From the NCBI GenBank assembly GCA_022561415.1, contig JADFRH010000012.1, positions 1-18,922 on the forward strand: a stretch of DNA of 18,922 nucleotides, read 5' to 3'. Every line of letters begins with the position of its first letter. Position 1 is the first letter of the stretch. This stretch comes from Planctomycetota bacterium (lineage in GTDB: Bacteria > Planctomycetota > Phycisphaerae > UBA1845). The position numbers and the translations under genes were made by a program. Positions 1,946 to 18,315 of this stretch are shown here, in pieces. The notes beneath the pieces were generated by a model. That model had not been told where the DNA came from. It did not search any database and worked only from the letters and a program-made list of their open reading frames with translations.

Positions 1946-3778
1946 GTGGAGCATGACGCCCAAGGGCGACTAATTCGACGCGGGGCTTACCCTGAGCTTA
2001 CGCTTCCGGCGATCTTCGTGGGTTGGCTGCTCGGTTCGATCATCGCGATTTCGATCGGGTACGCTTCGCTGATCCTCGGGTTTTCGATCGAGGGGTCCGA
2101 GCTGGCGGCCATCTTGGGCTGGGGCATTCTTCGCGGTCTGATGCGCCGCACCAGCATCGTCGAAAACAACATCAACCAGACGCTCGCCTCGGCCGTCAAC
2201 GGCGCGTCGGCCGGCATGATGTTTTCCATTCCCGCCCTTTTCATTCTCGCCAGCCAGAACCCCGAAAAGTACGGCGAGGTCACGCAGTTCAGCACGGTCC
2301 TGATGGTTCTGGCGTGCATCACCGGCGGCGTCCTCGGCCTGGCTTTTATCATTCCGCTCCGCAAGCAGATGATCGATTTCAACCGCCTTGCGTACCCCGG
2401 TGGAATCGCGACGGCCGCCATTCTCAAATCACCCGGCGCCGGTCTCCGCAAAGCCGTCCTGCTGACCGGTTCGGCCGTCGTGTCCGGCATCGTCTACCTG
2501 CTGTTCCTGCATTACTTCGGCGAGCATCCCAAAGGTGAACTCGGAAAGGCCTGGGGGCTGCCGCCGCTACTGAACATCACGTTTCTTCTTTCCTTGATGA
2601 CCATCGGCGTGGGGTTCCTCTCCGGCAGAGGCGGCATGGTCTTTGCCTATGGCGGTTTCATCTGTTACTTCCTGCTCGCCCCGCTGCTGGCCTACTTTGG
2701 ATCTTCCGAAGTAAGACAGATCATTGATCCGTTGGCGGCCGGCGCACACGCCGCGCTCTCTGCGATCGAGCAGAGTGAACTGCTTGATGCGATCCCCAAC
2801 GTGCTGCGCGCCAAGCTCTTCAAGCCGACCGGCATCGGGATGCTGATCGGAGCGGCCCTCGGCGGCATCATCGCCGCGTTCCCCCTCGTTCGCAGCGCCA
2901 TCCGCTCCATGCAGCAGGCCTCCAAAGAGAAAGGCAAAGCCGGCGCCGGCGCGGGCGATGAAATGCCCATCGGCATTCTCTACGCTGCGATCGGCGGCGG
3001 CGCCCTCGCGCTGGTCGCCATTGCCTACGCATCCGTAGACGGCATGGTCGCCTGGCGCGCGGTTTCCATGGCCCTGCTCGGCACCTTGTGGATCTGGATC
3101 GCCGGCGTGATCGTGTCGGAGTGCCTCGGTCGCACGAACTGGTCACCGCTGTCCGGCATGACGCTCATCGCGATCACGATCCTCATTCTCATCAGCAGCG
3201 GGCTCAGCACCACAGCGTCAGTAATCAGTTCGGTTATGGTCGGGGCGGCCATCTGCGTCGCCATCGCCCAAGCGGGTGACATGATGCTCGACCTCAAGTC
3301 CGGCTATCTCGTCGGCGCAAGCCCCAAAAAGCAGCAGATCGCGCAGTACCTCGGCACCTGGCTCGGTCCGATTTTGATCATCATGCTCATCTTCGTTCTT
3401 CACAGAGCGTATGGACTCGGCAGCGAGAGGCTTCCCGCCCCGCAGGGTGAGGCACTGGCCGGCATGATTAACGGCCTGGTGGGCGGCGAGGTTCCGACCT
3501 GGCGCTACGCGGCCGGTGCCGGGCTCGGTGCGCTGCTCGCGTTCAGTGGGCTCGGCGGCATCGGCGTGCTGATCGGCCTGGGCTTCTACATGCCGTTCTC
3601 GACCGTGCTGACCTACACCATCGGCTGCGGCGGCCGCATACTCGTTGAGCGGGTCAAAGGAACGAAGTTTATCGAAGACGTAGGCATACCCATTGCGGCC
3701 GGTCTGATTGTCGGCGAGGCCTTGGTCGGCGTCGGCAACGCCGTTTATCACATCTACCGCGCGGAGATGGGCGGATGA
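1946..3778 (+). CDS. OPT-family oligopeptide/metal-chelate transporter
   Basis: This 610-residue, strongly hydrophobic inner-membrane protein has the length typical of prokaryotic OPT transporters and roughly 14-16 hydrophobic segments. OPT-like features include a conserved polar-to-helix stretch beginning ENNINQTLASAVNG (from residue 73), YPGGIATA (150-157), and a Gly/Phe/Tyr-rich C-terminal helix pair around FSGLGGIGVL (from 533) followed by MPFSTVLTYTIGCGGRI. A charged loop near 319-340 (QASKEKGKAG) is probably cytoplasmic. The family moves small peptides or metal chelates into the cell using the proton gradient; the substrate here cannot be read. The start is GTG at 1946, preceded by GGGAG at 1931-1935. 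The stop overlaps the next start (ATGA), so the two genes are translationally coupled. Confidence 0.85.
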   Translation: MEHDAQGRLIRRGAYPELTLPAIFVGWLLGSIIAISIGYASLILGFSIEGSELAAILGWGILRGLMRRTSIVENNINQTLASAVNGASAGMMFSIPALFILASQNPEKYGEVTQFSTVLMVLACITGGVLGLAFIIPLRKQMIDFNRLAYPGGIATAAILKSPGAGLRKAVLLTGSAVVSGIVYLLFLHYFGEHPKGELGKAWGLPPLLNITFLLSLMTIGVGFLSGRGGMVFAYGGFICYFLLAPLLAYFGSSEVRQIIDPLAAGAHAALSAIEQSELLDAIPNVLRAKLFKPTGIGMLIGAALGGIIAAFPLVRSAIRSMQQASKEKGKAGAGAGDEMPIGILYAAIGGGALALVAIAYASVDGMVAWRAVSMALLGTLWIWIAGVIVSECLGRTNWSPLSGMTLIAITILILISSGLSTTASVISSVMVGAAICVAIAQAGDMMLDLKSGYLVGASPKKQQIAQYLGTWLGPILIIMLIFVLHRAYGLGSERLPAPQGEALAGMINGLVGGEVPTWRYAAGAGLGALLAFSGLGGIGVLIGLGFYMPFSTVLTYTIGCGGRILVERVKGTKFIEDVGIPIAAGLIVGEALVGVGNAVYHIYRAEMGG

Positions 3779-5787: not shown

Positions 5788-6912
5788 TTAGCCCTTGTCC
5801 GCTTCCTCCCCGGACGCCGGGGGCTTGGCGATGATCGGTATGGCCTCGCTCAAACGAAACAGGCCCTTGTCATCTCCGCTGAATCCTTCTTCTCTCATCT
5901 TGCTGATTCGATCGGCACACCACTTTCTCTCGATCCGCGTTCCCGCGGCCGGCCGGCCTTCACCCGCCCCATCGAACCAATCGCCGAGGATCTGTATCTG
6001 CGCGAGCTGCACCATTCTCACGGCCTGGTCTTGCTTCTCGATCTCGCCGAACGGCAAGCCGGTTCTACCGGTCCATTCCTCGCACCGAACCTCAACCTGC
6101 ATCAGCAACGCCAGCGCCGTCGCTCGTCCGCCCTGCATCGCGAGCAGCCGGCACCTCTCGACGTTTGCAAAAAGCGCGTACGGCATGGCACCCTCGGCCG
6201 GTCTTCTGACCGCAAGGCCAAGAACGGACAGCGCACGCGGAATGTCCGACTCACCGCTACGAAGACAGGCCTGCCAGAGCGCGGCCGCCGCCGACACCGA
6301 TGGCTCTTCATCCTCGATCAGCGGTGAGAGTAACGAGACGGCACGTCGCACCTCGCCCGACGAGGCGTCATTTTTTCCCGGCAGCAAGTAAGCGCGAAGG
6401 CCCCTCGCGAACGCCTGCAACGTCTTGTGATGTCGCGCTACTTCGTTCCGCTCCGCCGGGGCCTCGGAGGCCTCGTCCGAGTCTTTGAGCAACGCCTCGG
6501 CGCGCGCGAGCAGGTCGTCGGCATGATCCAGCGCCGCGCGCAGCCCGGTGCCGTCAGCGTCACCACGGTCGATCCGCAAGAGCTTCCGGCTGCACGCCGG
6601 CTCGATCTGCCGGGCCAAAACCAGATTCGCTCCGGCCAGCAGTGTCGCGGCTCGGCGCAGGGCCGGCTCCTCGCGGGTGGCCGAGGCCTCGAGAGAAGCG
6701 ACGCGATCGGAGACGGATCGTACGAAGGCCGCGTCATCGTCAAACCCCGAAACCGGCGCGAGACCCACATCCGGAAGCTTCGGCTTTTCCACGGCCTCGC
6801 CCGCGACCGGCGAGTCGGTAGGGGTCTGCGCGAGGGCGTTCCCCAGCGCGACGGCGGGAAGCAGCCCGGCGACACATACCAACGCGATTACGATTCGGTT
6901 TCTCATGTTCAT
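5788..6912 (-). CDS. Exported helical protein of unknown function
   Basis: The preferred start is ATG at 6912 (ATG 6906 is also possible; GTG 6924 adds only four residues), because it directly precedes a signal peptide: MNMRNR, then a hydrophobic core VIALVCVAGLLPAVALG, ending near ALAQ. The mature part is Ala/Glu/Arg-rich and helical, with stretches such as LLARAEALLKD and SAAAALWQACLRSGESDIPRALSVLGLAV that look like degenerate TPR/Sel1-type helical hairpins. No family was recognised. No strong ribosome binding site is seen. It is divergent from the VWA-ExbBD operon, and its composition resembles the exported TPR proteins of that operon, so a shared envelope role is possible but unproven. 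Confidence 0.7.
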   Translation of the reverse strand: MNMRNRIVIALVCVAGLLPAVALGNALAQTPTDSPVAGEAVEKPKLPDVGLAPVSGFDDDAAFVRSVSDRVASLEASATREEPALRRAATLLAGANLVLARQIEPACSRKLLRIDRGDADGTGLRAALDHADDLLARAEALLKDSDEASEAPAERNEVARHHKTLQAFARGLRAYLLPGKNDASSGEVRRAVSLLSPLIEDEEPSVSAAAALWQACLRSGESDIPRALSVLGLAVRRPAEGAMPYALFANVERCRLLAMQGGRATALALLMQVEVRCEEWTGRTGLPFGEIEKQDQAVRMVQLAQIQILGDWFDGAGEGRPAAGTRIERKWCADRISKMREEGFSGDDKGLFRLSEAIPIIAKPPASGEEADKG

Positions 6913-6941
6913 CCACAAACCCACTCGGCCTCAATGACCCG

Positions 6942-7094: not shown

Positions 7095-8051
7095 ATGGCT
7101 CAAACGAATCCAACCGGCTCCGACGTTTCCTTGAAGACGCTCTGGCAGCACAAGGGATCGGCCTCATCGACGCTTTCAGGTCGCGCCGTGCTTGTCGCGT
7201 GGGCCGTATCCCTCGTAATTCACGTCCTGATTTTCGTCGTTATGGTGGCGCTGGTGTTCCCATTCGCACGGCAGGACGCAGCGCCCAACGTACCGTCCAC
7301 CCACGCGGAGATCATCGGCCCGATCAACGATTCTCAGTATGCCCCGAGCCCGACCGAGCGCCCCGACCGGTCGTTGGCCGTGTTCGACCGGAAGCCCAAG
7401 CGCTTCACCCCGCGTGAGTTCACAAAGCTCGCCGACCTATCGACGTTCAAGAAGCCGGAGCTGTCCATCATCGGCATCGGCGCCGGAGGCGGCGACGCCG
7501 CAGGGCTCGGGCTGTCGATGGGCCACGCTCCCGGACCCGAGTTCTTCGGCCTGGGAAGCTCCAGTCGCGGTGTCCGTCGAATCGTATACGTCGTCGACCG
7601 AAGCGGTTCGATGCTCGACACGTTCCGGTACGTGCAGGACGAATTGAAACGGTCGATCTCGGCCCTGCGTCGAAGCCAGAAGTTCCATGTGATTTTCTTC
7701 AGCACCGGCACCCCGGTGGAAAACAAGCCGCGCCGCCCCGTCAGTGCGATCGCGGCCCACAAGGAGGAGTTCTTCCGCTTCCTCGACACCGTCTTTCCCG
7801 GCGGCGGCACCGAGCCGGGACCGGCGCTCAAACTCGCGCTGAACCTCGAACCCGATCTGGTCTACCTACTCTCCGACGGCGTGGACTTCGACCCGGACCT
7901 GATGAAAAACCTGGATCGTTGGAACAAGAAACGAAACGTGCAGATCTTTACGATCGCGTACCTCGATCGAACCGGCAGCGAGTTCCTCGAGTTGATCGCC
8001 AGAGAGCACGGCGGCGATTTCAAGTATGTCACGGAACATGATCTCCCCTAA
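7095..8051 (+). CDS. Membrane-anchored VWA-domain protein with TonB-like SxxxH helix
   Basis: This protein has 318 residues. Residues 1-30 are a short polar cytoplasmic tail, 31-56 a single membrane helix, about 57-160 a Pro/Gly-rich periplasmic linker, and 161-318 a von Willebrand factor A domain. The metal site (MIDAS) is complete: D168-R-S170-G-S172, T239 in GGGTEPG and D261 in LLSDGVD. The helix contains S39-L-V-I-H43, the same S-x-x-x-H spacing that TonB uses to engage ExbB/ExbD. N-in topology and a periplasmic C-terminal domain also match TonB/TolA. It is the first gene of an operon with ExbB and two ExbDs, so the inferred role is the moving, energy-coupled partner of that motor, with the VWA domain binding a protein target. 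The C-terminus overlaps the next gene by 26 nt. Confidence 0.85.
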   Translation: MAQTNPTGSDVSLKTLWQHKGSASSTLSGRAVLVAWAVSLVIHVLIFVVMVALVFPFARQDAAPNVPSTHAEIIGPINDSQYAPSPTERPDRSLAVFDRKPKRFTPREFTKLADLSTFKKPELSIIGIGAGGGDAAGLGLSMGHAPGPEFFGLGSSSRGVRRIVYVVDRSGSMLDTFRYVQDELKRSISALRRSQKFHVIFFSTGTPVENKPRRPVSAIAAHKEEFFRFLDTVFPGGGTEPGPALKLALNLEPDLVYLLSDGVDFDPDLMKNLDRWNKKRNVQIFTIAYLDRTGSEFLELIAREHGGDFKYVTEHDLP

Positions 8052-9147
8052 CATCCCGGCAAGCCGGTTTTACCGGTTTGCCCCGACTGTCATCCTGCTG
8101 GCCGGATTCGCTTTTCCTTGCGCTGGGCCGCCGCAGGCGACCTACGCCGATCGCCTCGTCGTAAACGGCACGGAGTATGCCGGGGCCCGGATTGTCGCCA
8201 TGCAGCGCGGGCGTTTACGGTTCCGCCAAGCCGACGGCAGGCTGGACGAGGCCTGGGCCGACGAGGTCGACCGCATCCACGTCGAGCACGGCGGCGCCTT
8301 CATGGACTTCAATCAGGCCGAGCGACTCGTCGCCGAAGGCAAGATGGCCGCGGCGATTCCGCGCTACACCCGGTCACTCCGCCTGGTCGAGGACTTCTGG
8401 CCGGACCTGATCTCGATTCGATTGGTCAAAGCCTGCGACGCAACCGGCGACTTCGACGACGCCGTCGAGCATTTCATACGTGTGTTGCTCGGACCGCACG
8501 CCGGCCCGACCGCAGCCGCGAGGATCATTCCCCAAGGCGTGCCGACGAAACGCAACGCCAAGGTCACCCGGGCAATGGCCCGCATCGCCGCCAAGCTTCG
8601 CGGGGGTTCGGACGTGACCGACGCGCAGAAAGCCCTGCTCCGTCTGTTGCGGTACGAGATTTTGCGTCACACTGGCGACGAGGAAACCGTGGCGGCCGCC
8701 CGTGACGTCGCGACGAGCGCCATTCCGGCAGCGGCGAGATCAACCCAGGCCTATGCCATCGTGCATCACGCTTTGGAGACCCTTCTTCAAAGCGACCCGG
8801 ACGAGACACTCCTCGAAGGGCTGGACGCAGCCATTCGAGACTGCCCGAAGGAATCCCTCGCCGGCTTCCTGCTGCTCAAGGGAAAGACTCTGCTGCGGAC
8901 CGCCGCCACCCAGGAAGACCTTGTCCGTGCCGCATGGCCCCTTATGCGCGTGGCCATCCACCTGGGAAACGATCTCCTGGCGCCGGAAGCGCTCTACGAG
9001 GCGGCCACCGCGCTCGAGCGCATTGGGCGGAAAGGCCAAGCGGCCGATCTGCTGCGCGAGTGCCGTGAGCACCGGAAGGTGAGTGCAAAGACCGGCGCAC
9101 TCGCCAAAGTCGCGTCGGAGCGACTACAATCGACCGTGACCGATTGA
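8026..9147 (+). CDS. Exported TPR-like protein with N-terminal beta domain
   Basis: This 373-residue protein is read from ATG 8026; ATG 8038 gives 369. The start lies inside the VWA gene in another frame, so translation is probably coupled. A hydrophobic segment (about residues 18-35) ending near TYA is a signal peptide. Next comes a small beta-rich section, DRLVVNGTEYAGARIVAMQR to IHVEHG (about 43-90). Helical repeats follow, for example NQAERLVAEGKMAAAIPRYT and DDAVEHFIRVL (about 96-155) and LLLKGKTLLRTAATQEDL later, resembling TPR units. The product should be a periplasmic scaffold. Its position between the VWA and ExbB genes argues that it serves the same complex. Confidence 0.75.
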   Translation: MSRNMISPNIPASRFYRFAPTVILLAGFAFPCAGPPQATYADRLVVNGTEYAGARIVAMQRGRLRFRQADGRLDEAWADEVDRIHVEHGGAFMDFNQAERLVAEGKMAAAIPRYTRSLRLVEDFWPDLISIRLVKACDATGDFDDAVEHFIRVLLGPHAGPTAAARIIPQGVPTKRNAKVTRAMARIAAKLRGGSDVTDAQKALLRLLRYEILRHTGDEETVAAARDVATSAIPAAARSTQAYAIVHHALETLLQSDPDETLLEGLDAAIRDCPKESLAGFLLLKGKTLLRTAATQEDLVRAAWPLMRVAIHLGNDLLAPEALYEAATALERIGRKGQAADLLRECREHRKVSAKTGALAKVASERLQSTVTD

Positions 9148-9176: not shown

Positions 9177-9210
9177 CCAGACGTATCGAAACCAATAAGG
9201 AGAAGTGCCT

Positions 9211-9999
9211 GTGCGGGTACGCTTGTTTACACTTGCGTGTTTTCTATTGTTGATCCTTTTCGCGATGTTCGCCCTGCCGGCGACCGCCCAGCCGAATGCT
9301 CCCGCGCTGCCCACGATCGGCGAGAAGATCAAGTACTTCGATTTCTTCGTAGTGAAGGGCGGCCCCATCGCGTACGGATTGATCGCGCTCTCGATCGTCA
9401 CGATCGCGCTGACCGTCGAGCACTGCCTCTCCATTCGCGTCGCAACGATGGTCCCGCCCGAGGCGGCCGAGCAGACGAAGACGCTAATCGACAAGGGAAA
9501 GTACCTCGACGCGATCAAGTTCACCGCGGAAGATCCCAGCATGCTCGGCTACGTCCTGCACGCCGGCCTGGTCGAAGCGTCCAAGGGCTACGCCGCCATG
9601 GAACGAGCCCTGGAAGAATCGCTCGAGGACCGCGCCGCGAGGCTCTTTCGCAAGACGGAGTACATCAACATCATCGGCAACGTGTCGCCTATGATCGGCC
9701 TGCTCGGCACCGTGACCGGGATGATCCTGCTGTTCGCCGAAATCCACGCGGCCGACAGCTTCCCCGGAGCCCGCGATGTTGCCGACCGTATCGCCATTGC
9801 ACTCATCACCACCTTCTGGGGTCTCGCCGTTGCCATTCCCGCCCTGAGCATCTACGCAATCTTTAGAAACCGCATCGATGTACTCACCGCGGAGTGCGCC
9901 CTCGTCGCCGAGCACCTGCTGTCGGCGTTCAAACCGGGAGCATCGAACAAACCCACGAACGCATCGAGCCCACCCCAACCTCCCGCGAGTAAGTCCTAA
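9211..9999 (+). CDS. exbB: ExbB/TolQ/MotA-family proton channel subunit
   Basis: The protein is 262 residues from GTG 9211. This start is chosen over the in-frame GTG at 9205 because AAGGAG (9197-9202) sits 8 nt before 9211 but only 2 nt before 9205. Residues 1-27 are a signal-peptide-like hydrophobic segment ending PATAQ, giving an extra N-terminal helix compared with E. coli ExbB, as in many planctomycete and Bacteroidetes forms. Membrane helices follow near 50-75, 154-177 (GNVSPMIGLLGTVTGMI) and 194-218 (ALITTFWGLAVAIPALSIY). The last two carry the MotA/TolQ/ExbB signature and the Thr positions lining the channel. It forms the pentameric ring that, with ExbD, turns proton flow into motion of a partner protein. 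Its stop overlaps the exbD start (TAATG). Confidence 0.93.
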   Translation: MRVRLFTLACFLLLILFAMFALPATAQPNAPALPTIGEKIKYFDFFVVKGGPIAYGLIALSIVTIALTVEHCLSIRVATMVPPEAAEQTKTLIDKGKYLDAIKFTAEDPSMLGYVLHAGLVEASKGYAAMERALEESLEDRAARLFRKTEYINIIGNVSPMIGLLGTVTGMILLFAEIHAADSFPGARDVADRIAIALITTFWGLAVAIPALSIYAIFRNRIDVLTAECALVAEHLLSAFKPGASNKPTNASSPPQPPASKS

Positions 10000-10454
10000 T
10001 GCGATATCGCCGCAGTCACCGTCCGCGTGCCGGGGTCCTGAGTTTCAACGCCACGCCGCTGGTGGACGTGGTCTTTTTACTCACCATATTCTTCATGCTG
10101 ATCACGCGGTTCTCCTCGGCCGAACACGTCCGCATGCAGCTACCCCAGCCCACCGACAGCCGGGCGAAGGTCACGAAAATTCCGGAGAAGATCATCATCA
10201 ACTGCCGTCTAGCGCCGGCGGCCGATCCGCTGGGGCGGAACGTTCTCTACAGCGTCGGACCCAACGCCCCGGAACCGCTGGAGTCGCTCGCGAACCGGCT
10301 CGCGGCGCTCAAGCGCGAGCAGCCGAAACTCTCGGCCGTGATACGCGCCGATCGCCGGCTGCATTACGCTGACGTTCGCGCGGTCATGCAGATCATCGCC
10401 GACCAGGGTATCGAGATGCTCAACGTGGCCGCGCATGTGTCGGAGGACGATTGA
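9999..10454 (+). CDS. exbD: ExbD/TolR-family proton channel subunit, first copy
   Basis: This 151-residue protein has a short basic N-terminal tail, one membrane helix (about 20-38) and a periplasmic domain, the standard ExbD/TolR plan. The essential membrane Asp is present as D23 in TPLVDVVFLL. The periplasmic part ends with the usual strand-helix pattern (SAVIRADRRLHYADVRAVMQIIADQGI). The gene begins within the exbB stop codon (TAATG) and overlaps the second exbD only by its ribosome binding site (GGAGGA, 10442-10447). With ExbB it forms the proton-driven motor. Confidence 0.93.
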   Translation: MRYRRSHRPRAGVLSFNATPLVDVVFLLTIFFMLITRFSSAEHVRMQLPQPTDSRAKVTKIPEKIIINCRLAPAADPLGRNVLYSVGPNAPEPLESLANRLAALKREQPKLSAVIRADRRLHYADVRAVMQIIADQGIEMLNVAAHVSEDD

Positions 10455-10455
10455 C

Positions 10456-10965
10456 GTGCGCATGCCGTGGCGAGATCAACGGACCGGGGGACGACTGCGA
10501 AAGGTCAATCGCCTCGGAAGCTCGCCTCGTCGATCGGCCGGCACGCGCGGCGTACCGATCACGGTGAATCTCGCGCCCATGATCGACGTGTCCTTCCTAT
10601 TGCTGATCTTCTTCTTGGTGACCACCACGTTCGAGCGGGCCGAGGGGATTTTCTCCTCCAAGCTTCCCCGTGATGCCGGCGTGCCCGCGGTCGCCCTGCC
10701 CATCAGCCCCATCGTCGTTCGCATCACGCAGGTCGGCGTCGACCACGACGACTTCCGGATTCGGATCGATCACTTCGACGCCAAGCCCGCCGGCGCGACG
10801 GAACTTGCCGGTCATCTACGTCAGATCCAACGACAACCCGGCTTCGACCAGCAGACCCCGGTTCTCATCGTCCCGGACAGCGCCGTCCGATGGGACCACG
10901 TCATGGGCTGCTGGAACGCCGCCCTACGAGCAGGATGCAAGAGTGTCGCGTTTTCCGAGCCGTAG
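10456..10965 (+). CDS. exbD: ExbD/TolR-family proton channel subunit, second copy
   Basis: The protein is 169 residues from GTG 10456. GGAGG at 10442-10446 is 9 nt upstream, while the earlier in-frame ATG at 10435 precedes that site; ATG 10462 is an alternative. A longer basic N-terminal tail (about 35 residues, many Arg) leads to one membrane helix with NLAPMIDVSFLLLIFF, where D44 is the proton-carrying Asp. The periplasmic domain (LIVPDSAVRWDHVMGCWNAA) is ExbD-like but clearly different from the first copy. Two unlike ExbDs beside one ExbB suggest a heterodimer in the ExbB pore. Its last 23 nt overlap the next gene. Confidence 0.9.
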   Translation: MRMPWRDQRTGGRLRKVNRLGSSPRRSAGTRGVPITVNLAPMIDVSFLLLIFFLVTTTFERAEGIFSSKLPRDAGVPAVALPISPIVVRITQVGVDHDDFRIRIDHFDAKPAGATELAGHLRQIQRQPGFDQQTPVLIVPDSAVRWDHVMGCWNAALRAGCKSVAFSEP

Positions 10966-13756
10966 CCTTATTCGACTTGTCCTTTGGGTGCTCGCGACGT
11001 CACTACCCATCGTCACTAGCGGCAACGCGATCGCTCAGCCCCCACGGACAACGACCCAACCTGCGGAGGAAGATCGCCTGAGCATGGCCGCTTTCCGCGC
11101 CGGGCTCGACAAACGCGGCCTGACCGATCTGCTGGAACTCCACATCAAAGACTATCCGCCGAGCAGCGAAACCCAAGGTCGCCTGATGATGCGCGACATC
11201 AGACTCGCGGAGGCGGCCGACGCCACGCGCCCGAGGCGGCAGCGCGAGCAACACCTCGCCGACGCGAACCTGATTCTCGAAGAGGTCATCGCCGCCAACC
11301 CTTCAGACGCGCGCCGTTTCGAGTGGCGTTTCGATCTGGCGCGCTCGTTGATCTACGAAGAGGCCGACCCCCTGTTGACCAGCATTCTCTACCGCGAAGG
11401 CGGCGACTCGGATCGTCGTCTCCTCGAGGCGATCACGTCGCGCGCCGTCGGCACGCTCTCGGTCCTGTTGGAACAGCTCACGGCGGAGTTCGCCCGCATC
11501 GACGTCCTTCCCGTCGCCGAGTTCGAGCGCCTCGAAGCGAGCGGCTACATCGACCGGGTCGATCGCCTGGAACCGAGGGCGAAGTACCTAATGCTCTGGG
11601 CCCGCTTCTACGACGCCCTGCCCCGAGATGAAGCCGACCCGATTCGCATCGACCACCTTACCGAGCTTGCCGATGCCCTGACGCCGGAATCCGTCATCAT
11701 CAAGACGCCGCATAGTTCGAGCCGCATCCAGGTCCAGGGGCTTCTGCTTGCCGGAATGACGCACCGACGCCTCCACGATCATCAACGCGCAAGACAGAAC
11801 CTCGACCGGGCGATACGAACCGCGCAGACGCTGAGCGAGCCACAGCAGCAGCCGGTCCAATGGGCCGTGACGCTCGCCTCCATCGAGCGCATAAGAAACG
11901 AACTCGAAGACCGCCGCTTCGACGAGGCGCTGCGGCATTCCGAGGTCTTCATCCATGACGTCGCCCCGCAAAGCTTCGGCCTGCGCGTTGTCGCCGCGCT
12001 CCTGGAAAGGTCGGTCTATCGCCGACTTTCCCTAGCGTCCGCGCGAGATCACAAACCCGAGCGAGCGACGAGCTTCAAGGAATCCGCGTGGCAAGCGTTG
12101 GCCGACCTGGCTGCGGCCGAGCCGGAGCATCGCGATGAGCTCTACGCGACGCTCTATACATCCATCGATCCGCAAGCGGACCCGGCGAGCCTCGACCCCC
12201 TCGAGCAATGTGCCTTCATCGCGGGCCTTCTTCACGACGCGAGTGAGAATACCCATCAAACCCAGGAGCGACTCCGCCAGGCCATCGAGGTGGCGCGGCA
12301 CTTTCTCTCGCATACGGACTGGCAAAGCCGGCTTCCTGGCCGACGAACGAATTCGCTGGTCCCCGAGGTGCTCTACAACCTCGCCGTCGCACATTATCGA
12401 AGCGGCGACGAGATAGCTGCAACAAAGCGATTCATCGAAGTCGCACAGTATCATCCAAGTTTCGACCAGGCGTCGTCGGCCGCCGAACTTGCCGTCCAGA
12501 TCGCGTCGTCGCTGTCACAGCGAATTCAGAATTCAAGTCGAGACCATCGCGAGGTTGCCGATCTACACCGTCAAGCCCTCGAACTGCTCATAGCGCAGTA
12601 TCCCGACTCCGAGGCGGGTCGCTACTGGCGCTTCTATTATGCGCAGCTACTTGAAGAAACCGGCGCGTTCGATGAAGCGGCCGATCATTACGCCCGCGTG
12701 AAATCCGATCATGAACGTTATCTCGACAGCGCATTCGCCCAGGTGCGATGTCTCGCGTTTGCGCTCCATGAACGCTCCACGGACGACACGCAGGACATCA
12801 TCGCGTTTCGGCGCGAGTCCAGTGATTTCCTGGCCACCCTGCGCAACTTCAACACCCTGGCGACCGAGACGTTGAACCAGATATCTCATCCAGCCCGGAC
12901 TGAAGCGACCGGCCAGCCGGCCTCGCCGGTCCGCGCGATGCTCGCCGAGGCCCGCGTGCTGTCCGCCGAGGTACACGTGCTGTCACGACTCCCGCAACCG
13001 GCCCAGACGCTCGAAATGCTCGAAAGTTTCGAGACGGACTTCCCAAACCAGAGGACGCTGGCCGGACGGGTATGGCGCGTGCGACTCATCGCCTACGAAC
13101 GGCTCGGGCAGCTTGAAAATGCGATGGATGCCATCCCCGCCTACATGGCCGCTGACCCCGCGCGGGCCGGTCCTACGCTTCAATCGCTCTACCTTTCGCT
13201 CGCCGCCGACGCCGATGATCGGTTTCGCAAGGGCGATGACGCCGTAGCGCAGCGAAAGGGCGACATGGCCCTCGTGCTCGCGGAGCAGGTCCACCAATGG
13301 GCCAGTGAAAACGATGCCTGGGACGTGGCCGGCGGAAAGCGTGCGCTGTCACTGCAACTGGCGGAGGCCAATCTCCGAGCCGGAATGCTCCCCCGCGCCA
13401 AGCAACTGTTCCAGGCGCTGGACCAGAAGAGCGATGCTGCTGCGCAGGTCAAGAATAGCCCCGACCTGCGTTTCGAACTCGGTTACGCCGAGACCCTGTT
13501 TCAACTCGGCGAACTTGCCTCGGCGCTACCCCATTTCAATCGCCTGGCCACCGCGCTCTCCCCCACCGACCCGGTCCGCTGGAAATCGCTGCTTCGCGAT
13601 CTTCAGTGCCGGACCTCACTGGCCCACCCGCCCGCGGGCATCATCAGCGTGATCGAGCAGCAGCGGTTCTTCCATTCCGAACTCGGAGGCCCGCAATTCG
13701 CCCCGCAATTCGAAAAGCTAAAACGCGAAAACCAGCGCCGACTCGACGGCGCGTAG
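10943..13756 (+). CDS. Large exported TPR-repeat protein of the ExbBD operon
   Basis: This 937-residue protein is read from GTG 10943. AGGA at 10932-10935 is 7 nt upstream and the start leads straight into a signal peptide (SRFPSRSLIRLVLWVLATSL, ending near NAIAQ). The frame is open further upstream to 10670, but that part is Ser/Thr/Pro-rich read-through antisense to nothing useful and overlaps the second exbD. Most of the chain is paired helices. TPR-like units are clearest near residues 476-505 (LYNLAVAHYRSGDEIAATKRF), 564-600 (YYAQLLEETGAFDEAADHYARV) and 843-875 (FELGYAETLFQLGELASALPHF). It should be a periplasmic scaffold or substrate-binding partner of the VWA-ExbB-ExbD machine. Overlap with the upstream gene implies coupled translation. 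Confidence 0.8.
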   Translation: MSRFPSRSLIRLVLWVLATSLPIVTSGNAIAQPPRTTTQPAEEDRLSMAAFRAGLDKRGLTDLLELHIKDYPPSSETQGRLMMRDIRLAEAADATRPRRQREQHLADANLILEEVIAANPSDARRFEWRFDLARSLIYEEADPLLTSILYREGGDSDRRLLEAITSRAVGTLSVLLEQLTAEFARIDVLPVAEFERLEASGYIDRVDRLEPRAKYLMLWARFYDALPRDEADPIRIDHLTELADALTPESVIIKTPHSSSRIQVQGLLLAGMTHRRLHDHQRARQNLDRAIRTAQTLSEPQQQPVQWAVTLASIERIRNELEDRRFDEALRHSEVFIHDVAPQSFGLRVVAALLERSVYRRLSLASARDHKPERATSFKESAWQALADLAAAEPEHRDELYATLYTSIDPQADPASLDPLEQCAFIAGLLHDASENTHQTQERLRQAIEVARHFLSHTDWQSRLPGRRTNSLVPEVLYNLAVAHYRSGDEIAATKRFIEVAQYHPSFDQASSAAELAVQIASSLSQRIQNSSRDHREVADLHRQALELLIAQYPDSEAGRYWRFYYAQLLEETGAFDEAADHYARVKSDHERYLDSAFAQVRCLAFALHERSTDDTQDIIAFRRESSDFLATLRNFNTLATETLNQISHPARTEATGQPASPVRAMLAEARVLSAEVHVLSRLPQPAQTLEMLESFETDFPNQRTLAGRVWRVRLIAYERLGQLENAMDAIPAYMAADPARAGPTLQSLYLSLAADADDRFRKGDDAVAQRKGDMALVLAEQVHQWASENDAWDVAGGKRALSLQLAEANLRAGMLPRAKQLFQALDQKSDAAAQVKNSPDLRFELGYAETLFQLGELASALPHFNRLATALSPTDPVRWKSLLRDLQCRTSLAHPPAGIISVIEQQRFFHSELGGPQFAPQFEKLKRENQRRLDGA

Positions 13757-14196: not shown

Positions 14197-14778
14197 ATGA
14201 TGCGACCGAACCAACTCGATGCCGACCGCGCCTGCGTGCTCGTGATTGACGTGCAGGAAAAACTCCTTCCGCTCGTTCGAGATCACGACGCCATCGTGTC
14301 GGCGATCCAGAAACTGCTCACGGCCGCACCGATTTTCGAACTGCCCGTCATCGTCACCGAGCAGTACCCACGCGGCATCGGCCACACGGTCGAAGCAGTC
14401 TCTGCCTGCCTAGAGCGCGGCCGCGATTCGATCATCGAAAAATCGGCCTTTAGCGCCTGGGCCGAGCCGTCGGTTCGAGAAGCGATTCTCGCCGTCGATC
14501 GCCCGCAGGTCATCGTTACCGGAATCGAGACGCACGTCTGCGTGCAGCAAACCGCCCTCGATCTGGCAAGCCGCGACTACGACGTCTACGTCTGCGCCGA
14601 CGCGATCGGCTCACGCGGTCGCGCCGACCACCAGCGCGCCCTCGAGCGCATGCGTCAAGACGGCGTCTGGATCACCACGGTCGAAAGCGTACTGTTCGAG
14701 CTGTGCGGCCGGTGCGACGCGCCGCGTTTCAAGCCGATGCTCGACGTGATAAAACGATTCCCGCCGGCGTCCGGATGA
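14197..14778 (+). CDS. Isochorismatase-fold cysteine hydrolase
   Basis: This 193-residue protein has the normal size of the family. The catalytic triad is visible: D18 in VLVIDVQ, K82 in EKSAFSAW and C115 in TGIETHVCVQQT, in the usual order and spacing. The E-T-H-V-C context and EQYPRGIGHT resemble the YcaC/ISOC1-2 branch rather than true isochorismatases or nicotinamidases. The soluble enzyme would hydrolyse a small amide, ester or vinyl ether; the substrate is unknown. It is followed after 1 nt by the zinc-ribbon gene, so the two form a small operon. Confidence 0.88.
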   Translation: MMRPNQLDADRACVLVIDVQEKLLPLVRDHDAIVSAIQKLLTAAPIFELPVIVTEQYPRGIGHTVEAVSACLERGRDSIIEKSAFSAWAEPSVREAILAVDRPQVIVTGIETHVCVQQTALDLASRDYDVYVCADAIGSRGRADHQRALERMRQDGVWITTVESVLFELCGRCDAPRFKPMLDVIKRFPPASG

Positions 14779-15135: not shown

Positions 15136-16503
15136 TCAGCCCTGGTCAAAGGTTGCCGAATGCGCCGGTCGGCGGCGGGCGATGAGAACCGCCCCCCCCG
15201 AGAGCAGCAACAGCGACGTGATGATCAGGCCCCATTCAGAAACCGCCGGAATTTTCGTCCCAGGCTCGCACGTGCAGCCGCTTGCACAATTCCCAGGGCA
15301 CTTCGCATCGTCCGATCCGTCACACTCCTCGCCCGCCTCGACGATCCCGTTGCCGCACACGATAGCGGTTTCGCACAACGAACCCGCAAATCCGGCATCG
15401 CACGTACACACCCCGTCGGCTTCACAGGTGCCCCTACCGTTGCAGACACTATGCCGGAATTGCCCACAAATCCCTCCACACACGGTCGCGCAGGCCACTC
15501 CTTCCGCCCCACGGAAGCCCTGGGCCACGAGATTCACGCGGTTGACGGCCGGATCACGCGCAATCCGAAAATAGCCAAGTTCCCCCCACGCTTCGCCGAA
15601 GGAATTCTTACACAGCCAGTAATCGAGCCCGCTAGCGATATCGGTCCCGAATCCGATGACCAATATGACATGTCCGCCACGGATAAAAGCTTCACCACCC
15701 GTATAGACCCCTTCGCTATATGCCCCAAAACCATCCCGAATATCCATGGCGCCCACGACGGAGCCCACATTTTCCAAATACGCCATGACCTCGCCATCAG
15801 TTTCAAAATCCCGTTGATTAGTCACCTGATAGCGATCGGAAAAGGATGCCGATGGGGTGTTGGGACAAGTCGATGGACACGCACCTGCGAAAGTTCTATC
15901 CCATGTTCACTAGTCGTCGGACGTCAAGCCATTGGCTATCAGCCAGCTCATATGAGCGCTAATACTGCTCTGAAAAGCACACCCAGAGCCCGGTCCACAA
16001 AACATATTTTCTTGCGCCGAAGCCTGGATGTCCGGGTTTCCCAGTTCTCCAAAGATGCTAACAGGAGGTGGAGCCGGAAAGCCGGCTCGCACATTCGCCA
16101 TACAAACCGCCAATTCAACCAGACCGGCCGTCGCTATGGGCTCACCGGCAAGGCATCCATGCTGTGTCAACACAGGGGTTCGACACCCTTCGTACGGCGA
16201 ACCGTGCGCAAAGGGATCGAAACAAGGCCCGTCAGCGGGATCGCAGGTGGTCTGTGCGTGGGCCGCTGAGGCGGCGACGCACAGGGTCAACGCCAACCAC
16301 GCGGCACCATTGCGTAGTTTCCTCGCCGACCGTATACCCAAGGCCGAGGATCTCCTGCGGCGCAGTTCGATCCGGGCGGCATCGACGGTGTGCCACTGCT
16401 GTGTCAGCAGTGCCGATCGCCGTGCCACCCGCGTACCGTCAAGGCCACTTTTCACGGGGCAGCGGCATTCTGCCGCGCCGTTTGCAAATCGTTGAAATTG
16501 CAT
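15136..16503 (-). pseudogene. Papain-fold surface protein gene broken by two adjacent stop codons
   Basis: This is a paralogue of the intact gene at 16960-18315, colinear in one frame from ATG 16503. Tandem in-frame stops TAG (15912-15910) and TGA (15909-15907) replace the Cys-Trp codons of the intact copy. No frameshift is needed, since the aligned stretch has equal length on both sides. Upstream part: repeat-derived N-terminal extension, signal peptide (WLALTLCVAASAAHAQ) and a TPVLTQHGC region. Downstream part: papain-like C-half with His in GGHVILVIGFG and Asn in CKNSFGEAWGELGYF, an EGF-like module, a CGNGIVEAGEECDG module and an IPAVSEWG-type sorting tail. At the nucleophile position Gly (LAGEPIA) replaces Cys. 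The good state of the downstream half suggests recent inactivation, or less likely readthrough. Confidence 0.8.
16394..16412. repeat. Palindrome inside the N-terminal coding region (unit 1)
   Basis: CACTGCTG and CAGCAGTG are perfect 8-nt arms around TGT. This is part of a longer repeat-like block (about 16383-16475) read in frame by the broken gene. The matching block in unit 2 is at 18200-18280. Confidence 0.6.
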
Positions 16504-16959
16504 GTCTTTTGTCTCTCGTTGGTTGAACTGTCGCATCGCACACACTCCCCGGCCCGGCTTGCGGACCAGGAGACAATGTTAAACGATCAGCCTCGCCTCC
16601 AGAAGCAGTCGCCGCGAACTTGGTAGGAACCCGGATCGACCCATCAAGCCGGAGTGGCAGGTGTCGCGCCCGGGGAGAAACCCTGCCAGTACGCTACCGC
16701 CATGGTAGGAAAATCGATGGGGCTGAGTCAAGAGAATTATGACGATATCAGCCGGAATAGCCGCAATCCCCGCTACGGCGCAGCGCCTACGGCTGGTCCG
16801 GGCGGTTCCGCCGCTATCGGTATTCTGTCGGGGAGGGATCCCTTCCCGTTGATCGCGGGAACCAATGGGACGCAAGGTTGGAATCCCGCCAAGAATGCCT
16901 CGCCCACGCCGAAGCTTTCGGCCATGCGGCGATCCTCGCGCAACCGTTGTCGGTGTGCA
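16504..16959. other. Non-coding leader between the two paralogues
   Basis: This 456-nt stretch holds the ribosome binding area and leader of the broken gene, a 45-nt block identical to unit 2 (16681-16725), a candidate promoter (16702-16731), a GGGAGGGATCCCTTCCC hairpin (16831-16847) and an imperfect inverted repeat near 16855-16891 that could end transcripts of the intact gene. No credible coding sequence was found. Confidence 0.6.
16681..16725 (-). promoter_or_regulatory. Conserved leader/promoter block, unit 1
   Basis: These 45 nt are identical to 18579-18623 although the flanking coding regions have diverged. On the minus strand, TTGACT (16731-16726), an 18-nt spacer and TACCAT (16707-16702) form a candidate promoter. 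CTACC-ATGGC-GGTAG could form a small hairpin over the -10. Just downstream, GGCAGG (16686-16681 and beyond) and CCTGCC arms flank a GC-rich centre and could fold. Confidence 0.45.
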
Positions 16960-18315
16960 TCAGTGATGATCAACCGCTACGCCACGCGTTATTCGGCGGC
17001 GGGCGATGAGAACCGTCCCCCCAGCCAGAAGCAACATGGACGTAATGATCAGACCCCATTCAGAAACCGCCGGGATTTTCGTCCCAGGCTCGCATGTGCA
17101 GTCGCCAGCGCAATTCTCCGGGCACTTCGCATCGTCCAATCCGTCGCATTCCTCGCCCGCCTCGACGATCCCGTTGCCGCACACGATAGCGGTTTCGCAC
17201 AACGAACCCGAAAACCCGGCATCGCACGTACACGCGCCATCCGTTTCACACGTGCCCCTTCCGTTGCATACAGCATGTCTCATTTGCCCACAAATGCCTC
17301 CACACATGGTGTCGCAGGCTATACCTTCAGTCCCCCAGAAGCTCGTGCTCAGGAAACCCACGTTATTTTTGAAGCTGCGACTAATCCTAAAATAGCCCCT
17401 CTCCCCCCAACTCCCGCCAAAATTACCTTTAGCCAACCAATAATCCCCGAAGAAAGAATCTGTCCCGAATCCGAAGACCATGACGGAATGCTCGCCGACT
17501 ATATCAGAAGAATCGGGACTTATGGATGAGTAGACCCCCGACGTATAGCTCAAGAAATCTCGCCGCTGGGTAAAAGTTATCACAGCCGGGCCGACATTTT
17601 CCAGATAGGTCATGGCATCCAGGTCATCCGCAAAATTCCGGAGATTCTTCACATGGTTGCGATCGGAGAGCGATGCCGATGGGTTGGAGGGGCAAGACGA
17701 GGGACATCCACCCGTCCAGGATGGATTCCATCCCCAGCAATCATTGGACGTCACACCATTTATCAGCACCCACTTGAGATTAAGGATAAGATCGGTCCCA
17801 ACGGAACAAATCCCTGCGCTCACTCCACAAAAATGAATTTGTTGCGCCGACATTTGGATAGTCGGTTCCCCAAGCACTGGAAGAGGAAACCCGGCTCGCA
17901 CATTTGCCATACAAACCGCCAATTCAGCCATAGCAGCCGTCGCCATGGCTGAACTGGATTTGCAGCCGAGATAGTCAAGGACAGGGGTCCGACAGCCTTC
18001 GTAGGGAGAACCCGGCGCAAAGGGATTGAAACAAGGCGCACCGGGCACGCATGGCGCGATCGGCTGTGCGTAGGTCGCTGAAACCAAGACAGACAGGGCC
18101 AACACCGACCACGCGGCTCCGCGGCATGACGTCCTTGCAGACCGCGTGCCGAAGGCCGAGGGCCTCCTGAGGCGCGGTTCGATCCGGGCCGCATCGACGG
18201 TGTGCCACTGATGTGTCAGCAGTGCCGATCGCCGTGACACCCGCGTACCGTCAAGGCCACTGCTCACAGAGCAGTGGCACACCGCTTCGTCGATTACTGA
18301 TTGCTGAGATTGCAT
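16960..18315 (-). CDS. Papain-fold surface protein, predicted Cys-to-Ser at the active site, IPTL-type sorting tail
   Basis: This 451-residue protein starts at ATG 18315, with GAGGGAG about 8 nt upstream. Residues 10-60 are a repeat-derived basic extension. Residues 62-84 are the signal peptide (AAWSVLALSVLVSATYAQ). The papain-like domain spans about 105-335. TPVLDYLGCKSSSAM (110-124) aligns with papain TPVKNQGSCGSCWAF, placing S121 at the catalytic Cys, S122 at the Trp and Y115 at the oxyanion Gln. MSAQQIHFC (155-163) matches the SEQxLxxC loop. H276 (GEHSVMVFGFG) and N298 (KGNFGGSWGERGYFRI) match the catalytic His and Asn. Next come an EGF-like module (about 349-374), CGNGIVEAGEECDG (379-392) and IPAVSEWG (414-421) with a membrane helix and ARRR, an IPTL-CTERM exosortase-type signal. 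Proteolysis is doubtful; binding, or Ser-based catalysis, is possible. Confidence 0.85.
   Translation of the reverse strand: MQSQQSVIDEAVCHCSVSSGLDGTRVSRRSALLTHQWHTVDAARIEPRLRRPSAFGTRSARTSCRGAAWSVLALSVLVSATYAQPIAPCVPGAPCFNPFAPGSPYEGCRTPVLDYLGCKSSSAMATAAMAELAVCMANVRAGFPLPVLGEPTIQMSAQQIHFCGVSAGICSVGTDLILNLKWVLINGVTSNDCWGWNPSWTGGCPSSCPSNPSASLSDRNHVKNLRNFADDLDAMTYLENVGPAVITFTQRRDFLSYTSGVYSSISPDSSDIVGEHSVMVFGFGTDSFFGDYWLAKGNFGGSWGERGYFRISRSFKNNVGFLSTSFWGTEGIACDTMCGGICGQMRHAVCNGRGTCETDGACTCDAGFSGSLCETAIVCGNGIVEAGEECDGLDDAKCPENCAGDCTCEPGTKIPAVSEWGLIITSMLLLAGGTVLIARRRITRGVAVDHH
18200..18280. repeat. Palindromic repeat translated as the N-terminal extension (unit 2)
   Basis: GCCACTGCTC-ACA-GAGCAGTGGC (18256-18278) is a perfect 10-bp hairpin. 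A second, related half-palindrome (CACTGATGTGTCAGCAGTG) lies near 18206-18224, so the block is bounded by related inverted ends. Read on the minus strand it encodes residues 11-39 of the papain-fold protein (AVCHCSVSSG to QWHT). It looks like a dispersed intergenic repeat that became coding. Confidence 0.6.

What the first reader, a model, noticed from the sequence alone, without database searches (positions are those of the whole stretch)
7095..8051. VWA protein with a TonB-type SxxxH membrane helix at the head of an ExbB-ExbD-ExbD operon
Seen: the only membrane helix contains S39-LVI-H43, an N-in/C-out layout is predicted, a complete MIDAS VWA domain lies outside, and exbB, exbD and exbD follow in the same operon. 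Known: in TonB, Ser16 and His20 (S-x-x-x-H) in the membrane helix are needed for coupling to ExbB/ExbD. Inferred: this is a force-transducing TonB/TolA analogue whose working end is a VWA domain, so the motor would pull on a protein ligand held by a metal ion rather than on a TonB-dependent receptor. No TonB C-terminal domain is encoded in the window.
Basis: partly seen in the sequence, partly recalled or inferred. Interest (0 to 1): 0.78.

Follow-up and report, generated by a model that had tools for sequence, protein, structure and literature searches.

The report
VWA protein driven by ExbBD motor
In a planctomycete-type bacterium, a protein with a metal-binding 'sticky' domain is fixed in the inner membrane by the same serine-histidine helix that couples TonB and TolA to their proton motor; a 2025 paper already proposed this class, and the conservation tests made here support it.

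Summary
Observation confirmed. ORF 7095-8051 (318 aa) has one membrane helix with S39-x3-H43, a disordered linker of about 100 residues and a VWA domain with full MIDAS; it heads an operon vwa-tpr-exbB-exbD-exbD-tpr. S39, H43 and five MIDAS residues are invariant in the 120 listed homologues, window included. All six genes stand in order in 47 of 80 relatives' loci. Beside exbB, 60 of 60 family VWA ORFs with a visible helix have SxxxH, against 0 of 33 control VWA ORFs and 3 of 422 other membrane segments. In a 3.79-Mb chromosome the operon's exbB is the only MotA/ExbB gene found, with no TonB C-terminal domain or receptor plug found. Five orphan VWA genes are exceptions to the linkage. What the VWA domain grips is unknown. 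In passing: an unrelated protein family (PD40 propeller, toroid) near other exbB genes carries the same invariant S-x3-H helix (120 of 120 listed).

The parts
7095..8051 (+). vwa: inner-membrane-anchored VWA protein, 318 aa
   Evidence: ORF, Pfam VWA, AlphaFold2 mean pLDDT 79.8
7179..7256 (+). membrane helix, residues 29-54
   Evidence: AlphaFold2/DSSP; hydropathy 37-55
7209..7211 (+). codon of S39 of the S-x3-H motif
   Evidence: sequence; 120 of 120
7221..7223 (+). codon of H43 of the S-x3-H motif
   Evidence: sequence; 120 of 120
7293..7319 (+). residues 67-75, conserved linker segment placed like TonB's D-box (H+24 to H+32)
   Evidence: mean column entropy 1.7 against 2.76 (57-66) and 2.53 (76-90) on its two sides; no pattern excess in the more diverse set, so tentative
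7572..8048 (+). VWA domain, residues 160-318
   Evidence: ten-residue pLDDT blocks of 94 or more from 161 on, save the last (88); Foldseek to ITIH, anthrax-receptor and CLCA1 VWA domains
7596..7610 (+). MIDAS DxSxS (D168-S172); with T239 (7809-7811) and D261 (7875-7877)
   Evidence: 120 of 120 at all five residues
8026..9147 (+). tpr1: secreted beta-domain plus TPR-type solenoid, 373 aa from its first ATG, overlapping vwa by 26 bases
   Evidence: Pfam TPR matches, all below cut-off; AlphaFold2 mean pLDDT 92.2; Foldseek to consensus TPR proteins
9205..9999 (+). exbB, GTG start, 264 aa
   Evidence: PF01618 E 6.9e-28; over 60 ExbB proteins (59 loci and the window) T169 and T203 60, P212 58, S63 58
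9999..10454 (+). exbD copy 1, 151 aa, pore-helix Asp in PLVDV
   Evidence: PF02472 E 1e-19; P-x-[VI]-D motif in 53 of 55 rows of this set
10435..10965 (+). exbD copy 2; likely start ATG 10462 (inferred); pore-helix Asp in PMIDV
   Evidence: PF02472 E 7.5e-15; motif in at least 51 of 61 rows of this set
10958..13756 (+). tpr2: large secreted TPR protein, start codon uncertain
   Evidence: Pfam TPR; same place in 47 of 80 loci
5788..6924 (-). divergent neighbour, 378 aa, apparently secreted, unknown family; association only
   Evidence: one sequence cluster holds it in the window and 26 of 80 loci, 1-2 kb upstream of vwa on the opposite strand; no Pfam match

Best explanation
The VWA protein is a TonB/TolA-like transducer with a different working end. 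Its N-in membrane helix docks through S39/H43 on the outer face of the ExbB ring; two different ExbD proteins fill the pore and are driven by proton flow; the motion is passed along a flexible linker of about 100 residues to a periplasmic VWA domain that grips a partner through its MIDAS metal. The partner is most likely one of the two co-encoded TPR proteins, or something they present at the outer membrane or cell wall. Shown: conservation, gene order, predicted fold, and in one genome no alternative TonB or ExbB found. Inferred: docking, force, metal, ligand.
For: S39 and H43 120 of 120 while neighbouring helix columns vary. SxxxH 60 of 60 beside exbB against 0 of 33 control VWA ORFs and 3 of 422 other membrane segments. 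Six-gene order in 47 of 80 loci. Motor residues kept over 60 ExbB proteins: T169 and T203 60, P212 58, S63 58; pore Asp motif in 53 of 55 and at least 51 of 61 ExbD rows. MIDAS 120 of 120. G003: one PF01618 match, the operon's own, and no TonB_C or Plug match; G001 and G002 also give no TonB_C or Plug match. TonB S16/H20 contact ExbB S34/W38 in cryo-EM (PMC12215075, passages).
Against: At the place of E. coli Trp38, which also contacts TonB, ExbB here has mostly Ile/Val/Leu; Trp in only 2 of 60. The L and second S of the SHLS motif are M50 and V54. The D-box pattern is not above shuffles over the 72 SxxxH ORFs of the loci set (8 against 7.2). Five orphan VWA genes keep SxxxH without exbB nearby. 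TonB_C is found in 5 and Plug in 9 of the 15 genomes checked, so the family also lives beside true TonB systems. No complex model could be made; no experiment is known to me; no ligand is known.
Confidence: 0.75

Rival explanations
1. The helix and S/H are used to regulate or gate the motor (a plug or sensor): the VWA domain senses a ligand and switches proton flow on, rather than pulling.
For: PMC12215075 suggests that tension on TonB may open the pore through S16/H20 to S34/W38 to P190 (passages). The same conserved residues would serve gating.
Against: A linker of about 100 disordered residues suits reach and pull; gating alone would not need it. Not excluded.
Confidence: 0.15
2. TPH-type VWA (second family of PMC12204202): the VWA helix itself sits in the ExbB pore as an ExbD substitute.
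For: Membrane-tethered VWA beside a tolQ/exbB homologue.
Against: No Asp/Glu in the helix; two separate ExbD genes with the pore Asp; S/H invariant, which that family lacks according to the paper.
Confidence: 0.03
3. Ordinary Bat-type (BatA/BatB) or signal-peptide VWA protein beside a motor by chance.
For: VWA plus TPR genes occur in Bat operons (recalled); weak BatC_Lepto hit of tpr2 (E 0.00083, 18.9 bits against a cut-off of 175).
Against: One helix only and no hydrophobic segment after the VWA domain; linkage to exbB in 58 loci with a visible helix; the two-helix VWA ORFs fetched from such genomes have no SxxxH.
Confidence: 0.02
4. The conserved S/H serve another membrane partner or a metal, and exbBD linkage reflects a shared pathway only.
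For: Trp38 of ExbB is not kept; five orphan copies.
Against: Same spacing and placement as in TonB/TolA; ExbB Ser kept 58 of 60; only MotA/ExbB gene found in G003.
Confidence: 0.05

Closest known systems
vWA force transducers of 'Origin and Evolution of Bacterial Periplasmic Force Transducers' (PMC12204202, Mol Biol Evol 2025)
   Same: SHLS-type helix, disordered linker of about 100 residues, vWA C-terminal domain, TPR gene, tolQ-like gene and two different tolR-like genes, reported in Planctomycetes among others (section 8)
   Different: Here the vwa gene is upstream of the motor genes, two TPR genes flank the motor and MIDAS invariance was measured; the paper says 'often found downstream' and its main text has no occurrence of MIDAS or Phycisphaer. 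Sequence homology to its Tichowtungia example was not tested
TonB / TolA
   Same: N-in single helix with S-x3-H, ExbB-ExbD or TolQ-TolR partners, a conserved linker segment at about H+24
   Different: No TonB_C/TolA C-terminal domain; VWA with MIDAS instead
TPH-vWA proteins (second family of PMC12204202)
   Same: Membrane-tethered vWA beside tolQ/exbB
   Different: Those carry a pore Asp and have no ExbD neighbours; here no acidic helix residue and two ExbD genes
ITIH / anthrax-receptor / CLCA1 VWA domains (PDB 9c4f chain I, 6fpy, 1shu, 6pyo)
   Same: VWA fold (Foldseek; ITIH4 and ITIH1 also by sequence profile)
   Different: Animal secreted or receptor proteins, no motor

Membership tests
vWA force transducers (PMC12204202) | membrane helix with SHLS motif, at least Ser and His | tested here: met
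   S39/H43 120 of 120; the L and second S positions are M50 and V54
vWA force transducers (PMC12204202) | disordered linker of about 100 residues, then vWA fold | tested here: met
   112 residues from the helix window to MIDAS; AlphaFold2 and Foldseek
vWA force transducers (PMC12204202) | motor box (beta strand) after the helix | tested here: inconclusive
   Conserved segment 67-75; D-box pattern 44 of 120 against 11.8 shuffled in close homologues but 8 of 72 against 7.2 in the loci set; no strand there in the monomer model
vWA force transducers (PMC12204202) | adjacent TPR, tolQ-like and two tolR-like genes | tested here: met
   In the window and 47 of 80 loci
vWA force transducers (PMC12204202) | sequence homology to the Tichowtungia vWA protein | not tested
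   That protein was not fetched
vWA force transducers (PMC12204202) | helix docks on the motor edge in a complex model | not testable with these tools
   No multimer prediction on hand
TonB/TolA | TonB/TolA C-terminal domain | tested here: not met
   No TonB/TolA family among the Pfam matches at E up to 0.1; VWA families instead
TPH-vWA | acidic pore residue in the helix, no ExbD neighbour | tested here: not met
   No D/E in residues 31-55; two ExbD genes
Bat/aerotolerance VWA proteins | further N-terminal helix and often a helix after VWA (recalled; such ORFs seen in control loci) | tested here: not met

The most novel reading that the evidence does not exclude
The Ser-x3-His helix is a portable motor adaptor: in planctomycetes, some with no TonB C-terminal domain found, it has been joined to at least two unrelated output modules, the MIDAS VWA domain here and a second protein of about 1,000-1,700 aa (PD40 beta-propeller, then the S-x3-H helix, then alpha/alpha-toroid and/or carboxypeptidase-regulatory domains) near its own exbB, so that ExbBD motors drive several dedicated envelope machines there.
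Probability: 0.5. Interest if true: 0.7.

Novelty: new member of a known kind. Interest (0 to 1): 0.45.

Why it matters
If true, the proton-driven ExbBD/TolQR motor does not only open nutrient receptors or hold the outer membrane; it can pull on a metal-dependent adhesion-type domain. The invariant His, Ser and five MIDAS residues give point mutants that would test this directly. A chromosome in which this operon's exbB is the only MotA/ExbB gene found is a clean natural case. The class had been predicted in print but, by that paper's own words, without any reported deletion phenotype.

Tried and rejected
Tried: strict D-box pattern over the 72 SxxxH-bearing VWA ORFs of the loci set, window included (8 against 7.2 shuffled): no excess, so the D-box is kept only as tentative. 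Pore-helix (TPH) reading: rejected, no acidic residue in the helix. Bat-type VWA: rejected by topology and controls. Lipoprotein TPR1: lipobox-like strings in 10 of 52 rows, inside the hydrophobic stretch and not conserved, so read as secreted. Phylum search with alignment A1: 74 of 149 genomes matched at 1e-10, but most listed rows cover only the VWA domain, so it does not give the spread of the family. Six paper searches (one search found nothing) showed one paper on vWA transducers. The Fisher tests are descriptive only, because the sequences are related; they are not used.

Rows dropped before counts: of 87 VWA-HMM rows, the window, 24 rows without exbB within 8 kb and 2 exbB-near rows without a visible helix (L032 and the second L063 piece) are outside the 60 of 60. 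Of the 24, 11 have SxxxH by script plus L056 by eye, 10 do not (two of them with other architecture in L048 and L065 each; L079 has Ala in place of Ser), 2 have no helix; in 7 of the 12 with SxxxH the contig ends within 2.3 kb downstream. The 32 locus rows of alignment A2 were chosen for having SxxxH, so its S/H invariance is circular for them and is not used as evidence.

Full report
Observation. The ORF 7095-8051 encodes 318 aa. Its single hydrophobic segment carries S39-LVI-H43. AlphaFold2, from an 82-row alignment, gives a helix at 29-54, a low-confidence linker and a VWA fold with ten-residue pLDDT blocks of 94 or more from residue 161, save the last. The charge balance (+2 over 1-30, 0 over 56-70) fits N-in/C-out, and the helix has no acidic residue. 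Pfam gives VWA (8.5e-09), MotA_ExbB (6.9e-28) and ExbD twice (1e-19, 7.5e-15). The operon is richer than the finding says: tpr1 (8026-9147) overlaps the end of vwa and precedes exbB, and tpr2 (to 13756) closes the run.

Conservation test. Of 349 database homologues at E up to 1e-5 the best 120 were listed, the first being the window's own protein. All 120 have S39, H43 and the five MIDAS residues D168, S170, S172, T239, D261; W36 is kept in 118 of 119. Most other helix columns have entropies of 1 to 3 bits, so the S/H pair stands out from general similarity.

Linkage test. Iterated HMM searches found vwa-tpr1-exbB-exbD-exbD-tpr2 in that order on one strand in 47 of 80. In L059 the motor genes and tpr1 lie on the opposite strand; L058, L060-L062, L066-L068 and L070-L072 keep vwa, exbB and one or two exbD without a recognised tpr1, though an unlabelled ORF stands between vwa and exbB in L060, L066, L070 and L072. 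Besides the window, 62 VWA rows lie within 8 kb of exbB; 60 have a visible helix and all 60 have SxxxH. Control 1: 30 loci of 2.1-3.4 kb were fetched for the best of 197 PF13519 matches in 15 genomes; 33 VWA ORFs there had an upstream hydrophobic segment and no exbB in the locus, and none had SxxxH, while the one such ORF near exbB had it. The flanks are only about 1.5 kb, and many of these ORFs look like the two-helix Bat type (a label recalled) or carry signal peptides, so this shows that SxxxH is not a general VWA trait, not that every exbB-less relative lacks it. Control 2: 3 of 422 hydrophobic segments of other mechanical ORFs in the loci have SxxxH.

Results against. Five family-like VWA ORFs (L041, L056, L057, L064, L074) have SxxxH and no exbB in at least 5.6 kb downstream. 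All five genomes hold PF01618 genes elsewhere. For L041 one of them scores 313.6 with the operon's exbB model and has two exbD-like ORFs beside it, so that operon looks split; the genome of L056 has another VWA ORF directly before exbB and exbD (L149); partners of L057, L064 and L074 are unknown. ExbB keeps a Ser at the place of E. coli S34 in 58 of 60 proteins (59 loci and the window), but the place of W38 is mostly Ile, Val or Leu, with Trp in 2 of 60, the same two that have Asp for the Ser (placement of S34/W38 rests on recalled letters). PMC12215075 describes TonB S16/H20 in contact with both (passages). T148, T181 and P190 of E. coli ExbB correspond to T169, T203 and P212 (alignment) and are kept in 60, 60 and 58 of 60. 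The D-box (PMC10907165, passages) is only half supported: residues 67-75 are a conserved island at H+24 to H+32, and the hydrophobic pattern occurs in 44 of 120 close homologues against 11.8 in shuffles, but in 8 of 72 of the more diverse set against 7.2. The most conserved linker stretch is another one, 122-135 (mean entropy 0.77), and it is unexplained.

Is there another transducer? In 15 genomes that hold the family, TonB_C was found in 5 and the receptor Plug in 9, so the family is not confined to TonB-less genomes. The three chromosome records G001-G003 gave neither. G003 has one PF01618 match in 3.79 Mb, and it lies in this operon. G001 and G002 have two more each: one stands before an OmpA-domain gene among what I read as flagellar genes, the MotA-MotB arrangement, and one lies beside exbD and a protein of about 1,500 aa. 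Some stretches of these genomes are masked, so absence is not absolute.

Mechanism. The best reading is a TonB/TolA-like adaptor with a VWA working end: helix on ExbB TM1, ExbD heterodimer in the pore, linker across the periplasm, MIDAS on a ligand. The two TPR proteins are the nearest candidates for the ligand or its carrier; the tpr1 model is a small beta domain with a TPR-type solenoid. Only anatomy and conservation are shown; docking, metal, force and ligand are inferred.

Prior art. Section 8 of PMC12204202 (read in full; other parts as passages) proposes this class, including Planctomycetes, the SHLS helix, a motor box, TPR, tolQ and a pair of tolR genes, with AF3 models; it states that no deletion phenotypes had been reported. 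Its main text has no occurrence of MIDAS or Phycisphaer. So the window holds a new, well-supported member of a published kind for which I saw no experiment. Added here: the measured invariance of S, H and MIDAS, the controls, the six-gene order with vwa at the head and two TPR genes, and the single-motor chromosome.

In passing. The proteins of about 1,500 aa beside the third exbB-exbD of G001 and G002 have PD40 repeats, a helix with S-x3-H, a toroid-like stretch and a CarboxypepD_reg match (just below its cut-off in the second). Of 164 homologues of that helix region the best 120 were listed, 978-1744 aa long; S and H are 120 of 120. Eight of 15 genomes have a match, and in all eight it lies 1.6-1.7 kb from a PF01618 match; exbD beside it was seen only in the two read out. 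The listings showed no paper on it. This suggests that the motor-coupling helix is portable, which is the most novel reading left open.

Noticed in passing
L142:6994-11571 (+) and L144:1331-5755 (-): A ~1,500-aa protein directly after exbB-exbD: PD40 beta-propeller, then a helix with S-x3-H, then a toroid-like stretch (SQHop_cyclase matches) and CarboxypepD_reg. S and H are 120 of 120 in the listed homologues; in the 8 of 15 genomes with a match it lies 1.6-1.7 kb from a MotA/ExbB match. A possible second, unrelated force transducer.
   Followed up: partly
window 7458-7499 (residues 122-135 of the VWA protein): Short Gly-rich stretch (IIGIGAGGGD) before the VWA domain, the most conserved part of the linker (mean entropy 0.77), low confidence in the model; role unknown.
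   Followed up: no
L045:3273-6575, L047:7147-10513: Two tandem VWA genes, both with SxxxH, ahead of one motor operon that has an extra exbD-like hit.
   Followed up: no
L041 (genome G164, L150): Operon apparently split: vwa-tpr1 on one contig, orthologous exbB with two exbD-like ORFs on another in the same genome.
   Followed up: partly
window 5788-6924 (-): Divergent neighbour with no Pfam match, found 1-2 kb upstream of vwa in 26 of 80 loci as well; a candidate further component.
   Followed up: no
L053:3907-4689, L054:9282-10136: The two ExbB proteins with Asp in place of the TM1 serine are the same two that have Trp four residues on; their VWA partners keep SxxxH.
   Followed up: no
window 15136-18315 (-): Papain-family protein with EGF-like and IPTL-CTERM-type C-terminal matches (16960-18315), and a second, similar copy that lies in two ORFs (15136-15825 and, by eye only, 15910-16545, which has no Pfam match).
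   Followed up: partly
window 14197-14778 (+): Isochorismatase-family gene, also found 6-9 kb from vwa in 17 of 80 loci.
   Followed up: no
window 1946-3778 (+): OPT oligopeptide transporter gene (PF03169, E 1.4e-52).
   Followed up: no
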